Below are positions 6,411-10,494 of a stretch of 24,775 nt of DNA, piece by piece. The stretch is from a virus, in IMG/VR virus record IMGVR_UViG_3300009506_000180, positions 1-24,775 of that record; one strand, 5' to 3'. A model generated the notes under the pieces. It saw only the letters and a list, made by a program, of their open reading frames with translations. It had not been told where the DNA came from and did no database searches. The translations under genes were made by a program, and so were the position numbers. Every line of letters starts with the position of its first letter. The first letter of the stretch is position 1.

Positions 6411-7085
6411 ATGCCACGACAGCGCATAAATGATAGGCTGCTGGCATGCAACTTTCATCTTCTTGACGTTGATTTTTCCTTGAACGTTCCGCCGTGGGTT
6501 TTTACGCCAAGTGCAGGATTTTCTTCTATTACTGCGCCGGAGATGACAATTGAGTTTGAGGAGATTGACGAAGGAAACGGTCTCTTCCCTTATAAGGTTT
6601 TGACAAAAGGAACGGTAAACACGATTACGCTACAGCGTGGGGTATCTGCCTTCAATTCTGATTTTTGGCGTTGGATTGTCAGTTGCCAACAGGGGAACAA
6701 AAATACTGCTGCGACAGCTCTTGAATTTATAAAGGGCGCTTTTTATCCCAGTGCGAAACGTCGGAATATTATGATTTTACATTTGAGCGGAATGTCTTTT
6801 GATGCCGTGAAAGATGCTTTGCGTTCAGGGGGGACTGATGCTATACGGGGAGGACTGTATTCTCCTGCAGGAGCTATTACGAGAGCCCTAGAAGAGGTTT
6901 CGTCTACAGCTGGCATGGCAGATATCGGATTGAAAAGCATTCCGGCAAAAGCGTATATATTACGAGGATGTCTTCCTGTACGATACAAAGTGGGCAGCGA
7001 TTTTGATGCAACAGCAAGCGATGTGAGTTTAGAGGAATTAGAAATAACTTATCATCACTTTGAAGAATTCGCGTTTAAAGCCTAA
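6411..7085 (+). CDS. Second tail-tube paralogue, extended (possible tube-initiator or tube-cap protein)
   Basis: This 224-residue protein aligns by eye with the tube protein before it. Shared features are Gly-Phe-Ser-Ser-Ile-Thr-Ala-Pro-Glu, an acidic Glu-Glu-Ile-Asp-Glu-Gly-Asn loop, Ile-Thr-Leu-Gln-Arg-Gly, Phe-Trp-Arg-Trp and a C-terminal Leu-Pro-Val-Arg-Tyr-Lys...Asp-Ala-Thr-Ala-Ser-Asp-Val. The extra length is an insertion at about residues 110-180, between the Phe-Trp-x-Trp helix and the last strands. In T4-like tails, tube-fold paralogues with insertions sit at the baseplate and start the tube, and that is the likeliest role here. No ribosome site is visible before ATG 6411, so translation probably depends on the upstream gene 7 bases away. 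The last 17 codons are duplicated at 7823-7876. Confidence 0.75.
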   Translation: MPRQRINDRLLACNFHLLDVDFSLNVPPWVFTPSAGFSSITAPEMTIEFEEIDEGNGLFPYKVLTKGTVNTITLQRGVSAFNSDFWRWIVSCQQGNKNTAATALEFIKGAFYPSAKRRNIMILHLSGMSFDAVKDALRSGGTDAIRGGLYSPAGAITRALEEVSSTAGMADIGLKSIPAKAYILRGCLPVRYKVGSDFDATASDVSLEELEITYHHFEEFAFKA

Positions 7086-7155
7086 GGAGTTTATTGTGAA
7101 GTTAGATCATGTAATAGAAAATTTGAAGAGTATGCTTTCTGTGTTTTCCGAATCT
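7031..7155 (+). repeat. Cassette 5' flank, copy 1
   Basis: These 125 bases recur at 7822-7946 with 4 differences and no gaps (offset 791). The copy spans the last 18 codons of the second tube gene, the ribosome site AAGGAG and the first 20 codons of the following gene. Immediately after 7155 the two copies lose all similarity apart from about 10 bases encoding Gly-Lys. Confidence 0.95.
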
Positions 7156-7683
7156 TCTGGTAAAATGCCTCTAAAAATTGCGGTAAAAGATTTGCCTGAC
7201 GGTATCCAACATGGTCTTCGAAAGTTGAAATTTGGGTACAAGAATATTGATCTTAGTTATTCTGATAGTATTAAACATCTTGGGCTCAAGAGAGGTAATG
7301 CCTATCCTGTGATTGGGGCTATTAGCATGGAGGGGTATGTTGATAGGATGCATGTTGAAAAACCAGAGAAAATAGACATTCCAAGAAACGCAGTTCTTTT
7401 TTGGGGGATCGAGGCTAAAAGCCATAATTTCGGGAAACTTGTTATCCCAAAATCTATGGTTGATAAAGTTATTGGGAAGAGTGTAAAACTTGATGATCGG
7501 CAACATCTTATATTAGGCCATCTCGTTGACGGGCGAACACCTAAAATCAGGATGCGACTTTTGGCAATGGACAAAGTAAAGCGTTCCGAATTGGATGTCC
7601 TTGAGAAAATGGGACTCATTACCATTGACATGAAAAAAAGAACTGTTTCTGCTACAGCCAAAGGGAAATCCGTGTATTACTGA
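7096..7683 (+). CDS. Cassette gene 1: shared-leader protein with unknown body, 195 aa
   Basis: I start this gene at GTG 7096, which has AAGGAG at 7084-7089 (6 bases away) and matches the ATG of its sister copy at 7887. An in-frame ATG at 7060 lies inside the tube gene and has no ribosome site. Residues 1-20, MKLDHVIENLKSMLSVFSES, are identical to those of the protein at 7887-8225. They form an amphipathic helix with hydrophobic positions 3, 6, 7, 10, 13, 14 and 17. The body (from about 24) is unrelated to that sister. Its final 35 residues (Leu-Glu-Lys-Met-Gly-Leu-Ile...Arg-Thr-Val-Ser-Ala-Thr-Ala-Lys-Gly) look like the last helix and wing of a winged-helix domain, which is tentative. No enzyme family is recognised. 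Basic, no membrane segment. A remnant of the next cassette gene follows after 14 bases. Confidence 0.75.
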   Translation: MKLDHVIENLKSMLSVFSESSGKMPLKIAVKDLPDGIQHGLRKLKFGYKNIDLSYSDSIKHLGLKRGNAYPVIGAISMEGYVDRMHVEKPEKIDIPRNAVLFWGIEAKSHNFGKLVIPKSMVDKVIGKSVKLDDRQHLILGHLVDGRTPKIRMRLLAMDKVKRSELDVLEKMGLITIDMKKRTVSATAKGKSVYY

Positions 7684-7697
7684 ACCAGAGGAATAGC

Positions 7698-7823
7698 ATG
7701 ACTATATTATCAACAATCATGCCACCTGTGCTTGTCCCGGCAACATTTAGAAAACAGAATCGGAAGACACTCCGTGATGCGATACGGATATTGCAAAGGT
7801 CTAACAGGAAAGTACAGCGTGAG
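7698..7823 (+). repeat. Cassette 3' flank, copy 1
   Basis: These 126 bases recur at 8225-8350 with 8 differences and no gaps (offset 527). They encode the basic N-terminus of the gene found intact at 8225-8632. The copy ends at GAG, where it runs straight into the second copy of the 5' flank (7822 onward). The two share a couple of bases at the joint, as expected for a microhomology junction. Confidence 0.95.
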
Positions 7824-7832
7824 AGGAATTAG
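7698..7832 (+). pseudogene. Truncated copy of the downstream basic-protein gene
   Basis: The ATG at 7698 has AGAGGA 5 bases upstream and opens a 44-codon frame. The first 42 codons match the gene at 8225-8632 apart from 5 amino-acid changes, three of which replace an Arg (positions 20, 31 and 33). The match stops at the junction with the duplicated tube fragment, and the frame ends at a chance TAG (7830-7832). It has lost about two thirds of the protein. Its ribosome site is intact, so a 44-residue basic peptide may still be made. The three silent and five replacement changes suggest it is drifting, but the numbers are too small to prove this. Confidence 0.85.
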
Positions 7833-7946
7833 AAACAACTTATCATCACTTTGAAGGATTCGCGTTTAAAGCCTAAGGAGTTTATTATGAAGTTAGATCA
7901 TGTCATAGAAAATTTGAAGAGTATGCTTTCTGTGTTTTCCGAATCT
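7822..7946 (+). repeat. Cassette 5' flank, copy 2
   Basis: Second copy of the segment at 7031-7155. It still encodes the last 17 residues of the tube paralogue in frame, ending in TAA at 7874-7876, followed by the same ribosome site and leader. Differences from copy 1 include the start codon (ATG in place of GTG), one silent change in the leader and two changes in the tube fragment. Confidence 0.95.
7823..7876 (+). pseudogene. Duplicated 3' fragment of the tail-tube paralogue gene
   Basis: The last 17 codons and stop of the tube gene (7032-7085 in the original) are repeated here, detached from any start codon. The reading frame is intact, with Ile-to-Thr and Glu-to-Gly changes. It is a passenger of the cassette duplication and shows that the duplicated unit begins inside the tube gene. 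Confidence 0.9.
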
Positions 7947-8225
7947 ATTGGGAAAAGATATGTTATACGATGGGCCAAAACGAATGATTTCATTAAAGAC
8001 AAATATCTAGAAAAAGGCTCAACCAAGGATCCACGCAGGGCTGCAATTTTCACAAAGCTTCCTGATAGTATTGGAAATAGTGAAACTGGATTTGACGATT
8101 ATGAATTAGATCCGAAATACAAAAAATATTTGGATATTGGAGACTCCGTTGTTCTTAGCGCAGCGAATTATGATTTTGAATTAGAAAGATATAAAAAAGT
8201 TTTGGCAAAAAAAGGTCGGCATTGA
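7887..8225 (+). CDS. Cassette gene 2: shared-leader protein with a different body, 112 aa
   Basis: ATG 7887 has AAGGAG at 7875-7880. An in-frame ATG at 7851 lies in the tube remnant and lacks a ribosome site. Residues 1-20 are identical to the leader of the protein at 7096-7683, and both have Gly-Lys at 22-23. From residue 24 on the sequence is unrelated: a Lys/Tyr/Asp-rich body with Asp-Pro-Arg-Arg-Ala-Ala and a closing Lys-rich helix. The DNA of the body appears more A/T-rich than the flanking tail genes, which suggests acquisition from elsewhere. I recognise no domain. The stop overlaps the next ATG by one base (TGATG), so the two products are probably translationally coupled. Confidence 0.75.
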   Translation: MKLDHVIENLKSMLSVFSESIGKRYVIRWAKTNDFIKDKYLEKGSTKDPRRAAIFTKLPDSIGNSETGFDDYELDPKYKKYLDIGDSVVLSAANYDFELERYKKVLAKKGRH

Positions 8226-8350
8226 TGACTATATTATCAACAATCATGCCGCCTGTGCTTGTCCCGGCAACATTTCGAAAACGGAATCGGAAGACACTCC
8301 GTGATGCGACACGGAGATTGCGAAGGTCTAACAGGAAAATACAGCGGGAG
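8225..8350 (+). repeat. Cassette 3' flank, copy 2
   Basis: Intact counterpart of 7698-7823, forming the 5' third of the basic-protein gene. After 8350 the sequence continues into the rest of that gene, whereas copy 1 breaks off. Confidence 0.95.
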
Positions 8351-8632
8351 TTGCAAGGGGGATGTGTTTTCGAGGATTTATCACGAGGGAAACCGCTTGG
8401 TGTATTGATTACGGACTGGGAGCATAAAAAAGATCTATGGAGCATGAAGGTTCTCAGAGCAGGGGACATTATCGGATCGGCTATTGTGAAGCGGGTAGAT
8501 GGGGACTTCGCTTATGCTATTGCTGCAAAAGGTCAATCATTGCAAGAATACTCTATTCGCAAATTGAAGGATGCACAAAAAGAAGCATATAATGAATTGA
8601 TGAAAATGTTAGGATATGCAAGAAGAATTTAA
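8225..8632 (+). CDS. Cassette partner protein with strongly basic N-terminal half, 135 aa
   Basis: I use ATG 8225, one base overlapping the previous stop and equivalent to the ATG of the truncated copy at 7698; a TTG at 8222 is not needed. Residues 1-17 are hydrophobic with Pro-Pro. Residues 18-45 carry a dense Arg/Lys run (Arg-Lys-Arg-Asn-Arg-Lys-Thr and Arg-Arg-Leu-Arg-Arg), which could bind nucleic acid or an acidic partner. The C-terminal two thirds look alpha/beta with a closing Lys-rich helix. No known motif is visible. It is translationally coupled to the leader protein upstream, so a joint function such as partner, chaperone or antidote is conceivable but unproven. Confidence 0.7.
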   Translation: MTILSTIMPPVLVPATFRKRNRKTLRDATRRLRRSNRKIQRELQGGCVFEDLSRGKPLGVLITDWEHKKDLWSMKVLRAGDIIGSAIVKRVDGDFAYAIAAKGQSLQEYSIRKLKDAQKEAYNELMKMLGYARRI

Positions 8633-8644
8633 AGGAGTTTAGAC

Positions 8645-9403
8645 ATGAGTCTCTCAAAATCAAAGTTTGCTTTGGAGCAATATCATGCGTCGTTGCTCGG
8701 AGAATCTGCAGCGTCTCTTGACGATCCCCAACTTGCTGCTGAAATTGTCAAGAATACGGTCCCTGCTCGTGCAAAATCAAAATCATTTGCTGTATCGGGG
8801 AAAACGTTTCCTTTCGCAATTCAGATGTCAGGGAGTGATATCAAGAAAAAAAGTGCACGATTCAGCATTGCTTTTACAGGATCTCCAGGAAAATATGTGG
8901 CACTAGTATCAAAAGATGATGGAGATCCCACAAAAACACCTGCAGCACGACATCTTGTACAGGCTGCAAGGATGGCTGCACGACAGCTTGAGAAAATCTA
9001 TATGGGAGAATCTTTTTGTCGGCACGGTGTTATTCTTTCGGAGTCTGATGCTGGAGAAATAAAATGGAAAATGGACGACAATCGTGCCTTTGCTGATGTC
9101 GCAATTGGAGACGAAAAGTTTACTGCAAAAATAATGTGGTTTCCCGATAATTATGGGACAGGATCAAAACGACGAACGTACAGAATAAATATTGATTTGT
9201 TTCCAAAGGGGAATAAGGGGATGGGCAATCCAGAATTCTCAGTTCATGGCACAAAGTTTCAATTGAGAAGGAGACCAGGCTGGCCACTCAGGAAAGCCCC
9301 AAGTGGTATCGCAAAGAAAAACTTAAAGAAAGTTGCAATTTCTGAGTTCGATGGCATGGTTTCAGACTTCAAAAAAGCGGGACTTGATATCAAAGTTTCT
9401 TAA
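8645..9403 (+). CDS. Unknown basic protein, 252 aa
   Basis: ATG 8645 has AAGGAG about 8 bases upstream. The product has an N-terminal helical stretch of about 25 residues (Ser-Leu-Leu-Gly-Glu-Ser). Next come an Ala-rich segment, a central region with Pro-Ala-Ala-Arg-His-Leu-Val-Gln-Ala-Ala-Arg helix and alternating strands, and a very basic C-terminus (Arg-Arg-Arg-Pro-Gly-Trp-Pro-Leu-Arg-Lys). No signal peptide, membrane helix or catalytic motif is seen. It closes the accessory island between the tube genes and the assembly-chaperone gene, where simpler myoviruses usually have nothing. A virion cargo or DNA-associated role would fit its charge, but this is inference. Confidence 0.7.
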   Translation: MSLSKSKFALEQYHASLLGESAASLDDPQLAAEIVKNTVPARAKSKSFAVSGKTFPFAIQMSGSDIKKKSARFSIAFTGSPGKYVALVSKDDGDPTKTPAARHLVQAARMAARQLEKIYMGESFCRHGVILSESDAGEIKWKMDDNRAFADVAIGDEKFTAKIMWFPDNYGTGSKRRTYRINIDLFPKGNKGMGNPEFSVHGTKFQLRRRPGWPLRKAPSGIAKKNLKKVAISEFDGMVSDFKKAGLDIKVS

Positions 9404-9461: not shown

Positions 9462-9644
9462 ATGAGGACGGATTCTAATACACAAAAATCAGATAGCGGA
9501 AAGGTTCGATTCAATATGTGGTTGGCCCCACAGGTCTATGCATTTTTCAAACGTACTGTGGAAAAACAAGGCCGCACAATGTCTGACGTGATTCGTCAGA
9601 TGATAAATGATTTTTTATCAAAACAGGAGCAGAGAGATGATTGA
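9462..9644 (+). CDS. Ribbon-helix-helix (Arc/MetJ-type) DNA-binding protein, 60 aa
   Basis: The 60-residue product has a short polar lead (1-13) and then a strand, Lys-Val-Arg-Phe-Asn-Met-Trp-Leu. Two helices follow, Pro-Gln-Val-Tyr-Ala-Phe-Phe-Lys and Met-Ser-Asp-Val-Ile-Arg-Gln-Met-Ile-Asn-Asp-Phe-Leu, separated by Gly-Arg-Thr. This is the ribbon-helix-helix fold, whose dimers bind operator DNA with the strand. ATG 9462 has no ribosome site. The next in-frame ATG (9516) would cut the DNA-binding strand, so I keep 9462 and infer leaderless translation. It overlaps the next gene by 8 bases. It may repress its own promoter or regulate late genes; targets are unknown. Confidence 0.85.
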   Translation: MRTDSNTQKSDSGKVRFNMWLAPQVYAFFKRTVEKQGRTMSDVIRQMINDFLSKQEQRDD

Positions 9645-10494
9645 GGAACATTTGAAGAGCAAAGTCGTCACGGATACCTATAGATTGCCATGTGGGTATA
9701 TTTATGAAACTGAAGAAGGAGATTTTCTTCTGCGAAATGTAAAATTGCGAGAGATCAGCGGATGGGAAGAAGATCTTCTTGACAGAGACGAAGGATCACG
9801 TGAGTCTGCTCTCGTCCAAGAATTACTCGCAAATTGTTTATTAGAATTGTCTGACGACGAAGGTCACATTGTTTCCTCGGATACGCCTGAAGGAAAACAA
9901 CTGCTTCGCGCTGTTCCCGGAAAACTTATTCTGTCTGACTTGACAACGTTGTTTATTCGTCTTCGGCAACTTACGGTAGGGGATAAAGTGACATTCTCTG
10001 TAAAATGTACTGACCCAACGTGTGGAACACTATTTACGAAAATTGCAGATTTATCACAGGTTGGCGTCATTGATGTAGAAGGTGATCCTCTGGAGAGAGT
10101 GCGTACTCTTACGACGGATAGGGGTAATGTCATCAAGTGGCGCATGATGACAGGACAAATGCAGCAAAAGGCTGAAGCAGATGCCCTTGACATAGAAGCG
10201 GAGTTGCAGCGACGTGGAGGACGAAAGACGACACGCGCAAATATGCTCAAAACAAAAAAAGAAAGCAAGGCGACAGCTTTTTTGCTCAACCGAATTGTGT
10301 CTATTAACGATCAAGAGCCCACGTATCAGATGGTCAAGGATTTGGCATGGTCAGAACGACAAGATATACGGGATGCATTTGATCAAGAGGGCGGAATGGA
10401 TACAGAGATTCTTGTTCGGTGTGCATGTGGGAATTCTTTTTTGACGAACATTTCTTTGACGGCACGAAATTTTTTCTCCCGTTCGGTCGAATAG
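9637..10494 (+). CDS. T4 gp26-like baseplate hub / tail-assembly chaperone protein
   Basis: I start at ATG 9637, with AGGAG at 9625-9629 (7 bases away); an in-frame ATG at 9607 has none. The 285-residue product resembles the gp26-type baseplate-assembly proteins found just before the tape measure in many myoviruses. It has an N-terminal Leu-Pro-Cys-Gly and Leu-Arg-Asn-Val-Lys-Leu-Arg-Glu-Ile-Ser-Gly, a helical middle, and two Cys pairs (124/129 and 262/264) that could bind zinc. A basic region lies at about 185-210. Its 3' end overlaps an ORF in the -1 frame at slippery sequences, so a longer fusion product is likely. Exact family membership is judged by eye. Confidence 0.72.
   Translation: MIEEHLKSKVVTDTYRLPCGYIYETEEGDFLLRNVKLREISGWEEDLLDRDEGSRESALVQELLANCLLELSDDEGHIVSSDTPEGKQLLRAVPGKLILSDLTTLFIRLRQLTVGDKVTFSVKCTDPTCGTLFTKIADLSQVGVIDVEGDPLERVRTLTTDRGNVIKWRMMTGQMQQKAEADALDIEAELQRRGGRKTTRANMLKTKKESKATAFLLNRIVSINDQEPTYQMVKDLAWSERQDIRDAFDQEGGMDTEILVRCACGNSFLTNISLTARNFFSRSVE

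What the first reader, a model, noticed from the sequence alone, without database searches (positions are those of the whole stretch)
7031..8632. Tandem cassette locus: identical flanks, unrelated centres
A unit running from the end of the tube gene to the start of a basic-protein gene occurs twice. The 5' flanks (7031-7155 and 7822-7946) differ at 4 of 125 positions, and the 3' flanks (7698-7823 and 8225-8350) at 8 of 126. The DNA between them is unrelated: about 540 bases in copy 1 and 278 in copy 2. Simple duplication would give similar centres. This pattern is better explained by illegitimate recombination between two related phages that carried different alleles at one swap site, leaving both alleles in tandem. 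It suggests a modular locus where a fixed leader and a fixed downstream gene bracket exchangeable cargo. I know of no named system of this form in tail gene clusters.
Basis: partly seen in the sequence, partly recalled or inferred. Interest (0 to 1): 0.78.

Follow-up and report, generated by a model that had tools for sequence, protein, structure and literature searches.

The report
Phage leader-and-cargo cassettes, duplicated with swap
Two neighbouring genes in an uncultured tailed phage share a 20-residue start but have unrelated remainders, and relatives suggest that the shared start is a packaging tag like the one phage T4 uses to load, and later inject, exchangeable anti-defence proteins; the locus looks like a frozen intermediate of such an exchange.

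Summary
The 5' flanks differ at 4/125 bases, the 3' flanks at 8/126, and the 542- and 278-base centres are unrelated. The shared 5' DNA encodes the end of a T4-gp19-like tube gene plus a 20-codon N-terminal leader (MKLDHVIENLKSMLSVFSES). The shared 3' DNA starts at the ATG of a small conserved protein (B).

No close relative exists in the searched collections, but distant relatives explain the design. They encode T4-gp21-type prohead proteases. Within single genomes, several otherwise unrelated proteins carry one phage-specific leader ending in [LI]xE, the gp21 cleavage motif. Copy 1's body probably recurs behind three other, unrelated leaders. This is the logic of T4 internal proteins (capsid-targeting sequence plus injected cargo), transferred here to a tube/hub site. 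Bodies were exchanged between the leader's presumed cleavage point and the next start codon. The tandem is best read as one illegitimate crossover (2-bp overlap) between two cargo alleles.

Inferred, not shown: that this phage's leader is cleaved and directs packaging (its P3 residue is F, not L/I), and what either cargo does. An assembly chimera cannot be excluded without reads. Verdict: new variant of a known kind.

The parts
6411..7085 (+). Second tail tube protein gene (T4 gp19 family), 224 aa; its last 55 bases are the start of the 5' repeat
   Evidence: Pfam Phage_T4_gp19 E 4e-15; relatives 35-47% identical with the same neighbours
7031..7155 (+). 5' flank, copy 1: tube-gene end, ribosome-binding site and leader codons 1-20
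7096..7155 (+). Leader 1 (GTG start; MKLDHVIENLKSMLSVFSES), presumed capsid-targeting sequence, possible cleavage after E19
   Evidence: translation; like the type-2 leader of the nearest relatives (score reached by 0.07% of background starts); cleavage inferred
7156..7683 (+). Cargo body 1 (175 aa); probable member of a family found behind three other, unrelated leaders
   Evidence: BLASTP E 4e-5, phmmer 3e-4, profile without the window E 0.039 and the only outside hit; leaders at random level
7698..7832 (+). B copy 1: N-terminal 44 aa of the small conserved protein, ended by a chance TAG in the joined tube fragment
7698..7823 (+). 3' flank, copy 1
7822..7823 (+). Junction of B copy 1 to tube-gene fragment, 2-bp overlap (AG)
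   Evidence: sequence comparison
7822..7876 (+). Dead tube-gene fragment (last 17 codons and stop); both changes against the live copy are non-synonymous (I-T, E-G)
7822..7946 (+). 5' flank, copy 2
7887..7946 (+). Leader 2 (ATG start; same 20 residues as leader 1)
   Evidence: codon comparison
7947..8225 (+). Cargo body 2 (92 aa), unrelated to body 1; G+C 34% against 42% for the window; no relative found
8225..8350 (+). 3' flank, copy 2
8225..8632 (+). B copy 2, 135 aa: conserved core of about 44 aa plus a 91-aa C-terminal extension not seen in relatives
8645..9403 (+). Further accessory gene (252 aa) between B and the RHH gene, no relative; N-terminus MSLSKSKFALEQYHASLLGE is only weakly leader-like
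9462..9644 (+). Small ribbon-helix-helix protein, conserved position between B and hub
9607..10494 (+). Baseplate hub (T4 gp26 type)
   Evidence: Pfam T4_baseplate E 1e-7, phrog_150 baseplate hub

Best explanation
The 20-residue leader is a phage-specific targeting propeptide of the T4 capsid-targeting (CTS) kind. It brings the protein into the prohead, is removed by the prohead protease after a glutamate near residue 19, and leaves the cargo body inside the virion to be injected with the DNA. Because only the leader has to match the phage's own scaffold and protease, any body joined in frame behind it can be packaged, so bodies are exchanged by recombination while leader and downstream gene stay fixed. 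In this phage the exchange unit runs from the leader's end to the start codon of B. The tandem arose when two genomes carrying different cargo at this site were joined illegitimately, B of the first to the tube-gene end of the second. The result kept both cargos and left two scars, a truncated B and a dead tube-gene fragment. Shown: repeat anatomy, unrelated bodies, leader families with [LI]xE ends and prohead proteases in relatives, one body family behind different leaders. Inferred: cleavage, packaging and injection in this phage, the history of the junction, and that the cargo acts against host defences.
For: (1) Boundaries: DNA identity ends at codon 20, one codon after E19, and resumes exactly at the ATG of B. 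(2) Relatives carry T4 gp21-type prohead protease (PF03420), 12 of 20 records over the cut-off; in G001 a head maturation protease (phrog_207, 1e-36) precedes the major head protein (phrog_138, 4e-60), and most leader genes follow them, before the neck genes. (3) Within one genome unrelated proteins share one leader: G001 LRxRxYLxE (8 genes), G006 the same (9) plus MxLxxVNxLL (6), G016 MRxLLxRLEE, LR745208 LRSKLIRLAHxNPxLRPxLLPLLKEA (8 genes; 11 places by tblastn). (4) [LI]xE at the leader end in 8/8, 8/9, 6/6, 6/7 and 4/5 leader genes against 7-23% of other genes, Fisher p 3e-8 to 3e-4. (5) Body 1 family behind different leaders: among G001, G015 and LR745208 bodies have z 50-69, leaders about 0; window body supported. 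(6) In 11 of 12 distinct B proteins of relatives a Glu stands two residues before the TTS core (L009), so B too looks like leader plus body; the window's B starts at that point. (7) The window leader resembles the type-2 leader of G006/G001 (0.07% of background starts score as high). (8) T4 CTS is 10-19 residues, cleaved at L/I-x-E, and carries diverse cargo (PMC9026906, PMC3012670); T4 makes tandem amplifications through 2-10-bp homologies (PMC9391042).
Against: The window is a fragment with no protease and no rest of genome, so the leader is seen only twice here. Its presumed site is F-S-E, not L/I-x-E (in relatives B has FDE, QQE and QHE at the same place). Homology of body 1 to the family is remote (E 0.039 with the window left out). 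LR745208 has the leaders but no recognisable protease of this family. No single-cassette sister phage was found. Several relatives (G003, G005, G010, G012-G014) have the protease but no evident leader family.
Confidence: 0.68

Rival explanations
1. Two-step history: a plain tandem duplication of tube-end/leader/cargo/B-start, followed by replacement of one body by homologous recombination with a phage that carried another cargo. Same function, different order of events.
For: One junction with a 2-bp overlap is what a tandem duplication gives; T4 amplifies loci this way (PMC9391042). The dead tube fragment has only non-synonymous changes (2 of 2) and B copy 1 has five non-synonymous of eight differences, as expected if the scars drifted after duplication.
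Against: Needs two events where one is enough; the numbers of changes are small.
Confidence: 0.3
2. The tandem is an assembly chimera: two strains in one metagenome carried different cargo between near-identical flanks and the assembler joined them.
For: Metagenome contig; near-identical flanks around alternative bodies are a classic bubble; no second contig shows the junction.
Against: A bubble alone does not create a path from B back to the tube end; it needs reads across a novel junction. Both differences in the dead tube fragment change the residue, in a C-terminal stretch that is fairly conserved among relatives, which fits a non-functional copy better than a second living strain; but two changes are few.
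Confidence: 0.15
3. The leader is not a head signal but a tail-tube-lumen signal, as in extracellular contractile injection systems, since the genes lie between tube and hub.
For: Position between tube and hub; in the L032-L036 group a cargo array also follows the tube gene.
Against: In the nearest relatives most leader genes lie between major head protein and neck genes; leaders end in the prohead-protease motif; these records carry capsid, protease and a long tape-measure-like gene, so they are phages.
Confidence: 0.1
4. The leader has no function of its own; the shared start is only left-over DNA homology from a recombination hot spot.
For: The flanking DNA is shared outside the coding part too (tube end, B start).
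Against: Relatives keep leader protein sequence across otherwise unrelated genes spread over the genome, with the [LI]xE end.
Confidence: 0.07

Closest known systems
T4 internal proteins (IPI, IPII, IPIII) with capsid-targeting sequence and gp21 prohead protease
   Same: Short N-terminal leader shared by unrelated small proteins of one phage; [LI]xE at its end in relatives; gp21-family protease in relatives; bodies diverse and without known domains
   Different: Leader sequences are specific to each phage group; genes here sit between tube and hub; one body family occurs behind four leaders; exchange caught as a tandem; cleavage and injection not shown here
phiKZ / SPN3US head proteins with cleaved propeptides
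   Same: Glu-specific cleavage with few other determinants; identical N-termini on diverged paralogues (SPN3US gp53/gp54, PMC5694885)
   Different: Propeptides there are often longer than 100 residues; I saw no exchange of bodies described in the passages read
Mobile regulatory cassettes (PeSLs) in hyperplastic regions of T4-type phages
   Same: Modular shuffling of accessory genes through short shared sequences (from memory; primary paper not read)
   Different: There the shared element is a promoter and stem-loop; here it is a coding leader and the start of the next gene
N-terminal cargo-loading signals of extracellular contractile injection systems
   Same: Leader plus exchangeable cargo next to tube genes (from memory)
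   Different: Loaded into the tube lumen; no prohead protease motif (from memory)

Membership tests
T4-type internal protein with capsid-targeting sequence | Short (10-20 residue) N-terminal leader shared by otherwise unrelated proteins of the same phage | tested here: met
   Two in the window; about 8 to 15 leader genes per genome in G001, G006 and LR745208
T4-type internal protein with capsid-targeting sequence | Leader ends in L/I-x-E | tested here: inconclusive
   Met in relatives; the window leader has F-S-E at the aligned place
T4-type internal protein with capsid-targeting sequence | gp21-family prohead protease in the same phage | tested here: inconclusive
   12 of 20 relative records over the cut-off; the window is a fragment without head genes
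T4-type internal protein with capsid-targeting sequence | Leader cleaved during head maturation, protein inside the head | not testable with these tools
   needs virion proteomics
T4-type internal protein with capsid-targeting sequence | Protein injected with DNA and acting on the host | not testable with these tools
   no phage isolate; families searched gave no function
T4-type internal protein with capsid-targeting sequence | Sequence similarity to the T4 leader | not tested
   no T4 sequence was compared here
Extracellular contractile injection system effector | No head genes; cargo loaded in tube lumen | tested here: not met
   Relatives encode major head protein and protease; the window encodes a 1240-aa tape-measure-sized protein

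The most novel reading that the evidence does not exclude
In this phage lineage cargo is inserted exactly at the protease cleavage point of an existing leader-bearing protein (B). The leader is split off to serve successive new cargos, B is left to start at its mature N-terminus, and recombination within the leader code and at the B start codon forms a reusable cargo-exchange port in the tail operon. The leader is the phage-specific address label that lets one cargo family move between phages with entirely different labels.
Probability: 0.3. Interest if true: 0.7.

Novelty: new variant of a known kind. Interest (0 to 1): 0.54.

Why it matters
If right, phage-specific leaders ending in [LI]xE give a simple way to list, from sequence alone, the proteins an uncultured phage may inject, most of which match no known family. 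The cargo family found behind several unrelated leaders shows that the address label and the cargo evolve separately. The tandem gives a nucleotide-level picture of how a cargo is swapped without breaking the neighbouring structural genes. In T4 such injected proteins are anti-restriction factors (PMC12373910), so the bodies are candidates for new anti-defence proteins.

Tried and rejected
Leader searched as a degenerate DNA pattern in IMG/VR and in the genome collection: no hit. P0001, P0002, P0003 and the 252-aa protein against IMG/VR as single queries: no relatives. P0001-P0003 and tube 2 against GenBank phages: none. P0001 and P0002 against PDB sequences: nothing. Pfam, PHROGs and PADLOC: no function for the cargo; leader proteins of G001 and G006: no domains over cut-off. 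Structure of body 2: uninterpretable. Structure of cargo 1: pLDDT 69; no PDB match with E below 0.04; weak winged-helix resemblance at the C-terminus (MarR/HrcA-like) and one unnamed viral match (E 2.5e-5, TM 0.39); not used as evidence. First N-terminal clustering missed most of the short leader of G016 because 11 residues score too low; found by motif and profile. PF03420 and phrog_207 not found in LR745208, so its protease is unknown. Considered and dropped: homing gene or intein at this locus (no such gene inside the unit), diversity-generating retroelement (bodies unrelated, not mutated copies).
Full report
OBSERVATION. The window is one IMG/VR virus record of 24,775 bases carrying a contractile-tail gene cluster: sheath (phrog_23), two T4-gp19-type tube proteins, a gp26-type hub, a 1240-aa tape-measure-sized protein and baseplate wedge genes. 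The 5' pair (7031-7155 / 7822-7946) differs at 4 of 125 positions, the 3' pair (7698-7823 / 8225-8350) at 8 of 126. The bodies between them are unrelated in sequence: phmmer connects the two proteins only over the leader, and a profile comparison of the copy-1 family with the copy-2 body gives probability 0.5%.

ANATOMY. The 5' flank consists of the last 55 bases of the second tube gene, a ribosome-binding site and the first 20 codons of the next gene (MKLDHVIENLKSMLSVFSES in both copies; GTG start in copy 1, ATG in copy 2). Identity stops at codon 20, one codon after E19. The 3' flank starts exactly at the ATG of the next gene, B. So what differs is the cargo from the end of the leader to the next start codon. 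Copy 1 ends in a truncated B (44 aa) joined to a dead tube-gene fragment (17 codons and stop) with a 2-bp overlap; copy 2 continues into a full B with a 91-aa extension. Both changes in the dead tube fragment are non-synonymous; B copies differ by 5 non-synonymous and 3 synonymous changes. These numbers are small but fit scars that drift.

RELATIVES OF THE LOCUS. Tube-protein searches gave 30 IMG/VR loci and one genome contig, none close (about 29-49% identity). Where the order could be read it is tube 1, tube 2, B, ribbon-helix-helix protein (often with a zinc or HNH-like part), hub. The window has two extra genes between tube 2 and B and one more between B and the RHH gene. Other relatives also have insertions here: a 750-aa ribonucleotide reductase between tube 2 and B in L018, extra genes between B and RHH in L023, L028 and L029, and in the L032-L036 group an array of small genes downstream of tube 2. 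The stretch is thus a general insertion site.

LEADERS. The L032-L036 arrays led to the key result. Their proteins share a short start (MRALLERLEE...) and one of them matches copy 1's protein over the whole body (BLASTP E 4e-5; phmmer E 3e-4 for the L034 member among 10,663 ORFs; a profile built without the window finds the window at E 0.039 as its only outside hit among 15,059). Fetching whole relative records showed that in single genomes many unrelated proteins share one leader: LRxRxYLxE in G001 and G006, a second type MxLxxVNxLL in G006, MRxLLxRLEE in G016, and a leader of about 27 residues at 11 places in the 485-kb phage LR745208. In four records and five leader sets [LI]xE occurs at the leader end in 8/8, 8/9, 6/6, 6/7 and 4/5 genes, against 7-23% of other genes (Fisher p 3e-8 to 3e-4). 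Twelve of 20 relative records hold a PF03420 (T4 gp21) protease over the cut-off; in G001 it stands next to the major head protein, with most leader genes following before the neck genes. The window leader scores with the type-2 leader family of G006/G001 better than 99.93% of background starts.

ONE BODY, SEVERAL LEADERS. The copy-1 body family occurs behind four leaders that show no resemblance (window, G001, G015/G016, LR745208). Among G001, G015 and LR745208 body alignments are 50-69 standard deviations above shuffles and leader alignments at zero; the window's body is the remote member (z 9.4 to G015, 2.6 to G001, 0.6 to LR745208). A second family, G001 46409 / G016 49606, also changes leader. 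Leader and body therefore have separate histories.

B AS A LEADER PROTEIN. In 11 of 12 distinct B proteins of relatives a glutamate stands two residues before the conserved TTS core (L009), and in G006 B begins with that phage's own leader (MGLRKRAYLAE-ITTS). The window's B begins exactly at this point without a leader, as if cargo had been inserted between B's leader and its body. This is inference from comparison.

MECHANISM. T4 internal proteins carry 10-19-residue capsid-targeting sequences, removed by gp21 after L/I-x-E, and this may be how T4-like phages incorporate various proteins in their capsids (PMC9026906). T-even internal proteins are described as highly diverse with only the targeting sequence conserved (PMC3012670), and T4 Ip1-3 inhibit different Type IV restriction enzymes (PMC12373910). 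The leader/body organisation here matches that logic. The tandem is best explained by an illegitimate join of B from one cargo allele to the tube end of another. T4 makes tandem amplifications by recombination between 2-10-bp homologies (PMC9391042). A two-step history (duplication, then replacement of one body) is the main rival. Not shown: cleavage, packaging and injection in this phage, and what the cargo does. The F-S-E site, the absence of head genes in the fragment, the lack of close relatives and a possible assembly chimera are the main weaknesses.

STRUCTURE. AlphaFold for body 2 failed (pLDDT 45). Cargo 1 reached 69, with an N-terminal helix for the leader, a beta-rich middle and a helical C-terminus that resembles winged-helix regulators only weakly. 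No function is claimed from this.

VERDICT. A real and informative locus: new variant of a known kind (T4-type CTS plus internal-protein cargo), not a new category.

Noticed in passing
L018:4078-6330: A 750-aa ribonucleotide reductase (ATP-cone and RNR barrel) sits between tube 2 and B, the same site as the window's cargo.
   Followed up: partly
L014:5995-6642, L016:6360-6965, L018:6707-7285 and others: A protein with an HNH-like CxxC...CxxC part plus ribbon-helix-helix motifs is conserved just before the hub gene in many relatives; in the window and G001/G006 only a short RHH protein is present. A DNA-binding protein kept in a tail operon is unexplained.
   Followed up: partly
G001:26498-30247 (L056:6998-10747): A 1249-aa ORF upstream of the head genes (terminase position) contains an intein splicing domain and LAGLIDADG part (E 3e-25 and 4e-11), plus a second HINT-like match near its end.
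   Followed up: partly
G006:29165-31927, G018:24437-27202, G019:31697-34462: The prohead protease frame is about 920 aa and its PF03420 match is broken in two by about 400 residues without a stop; intein-like, but Pfam found no intein domain in the G006 copy.
   Followed up: partly
window 8357-8632: B copy 2 has a 91-aa C-terminal extension absent from B of relatives; perhaps another fused cargo.
   Followed up: no
G001:48492-51674: A 1060-aa protein in the cargo cluster starts MRLMQSTELSQMRDVILGKDMQALTE, which also fits a leader with LxE; possibly a large injected protein.
   Followed up: no
LR745208.1: Huge phage with at least 8 leader genes scattered over 485 kb but no protease of the gp21 family found; its protease may be of another kind.
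   Followed up: partly
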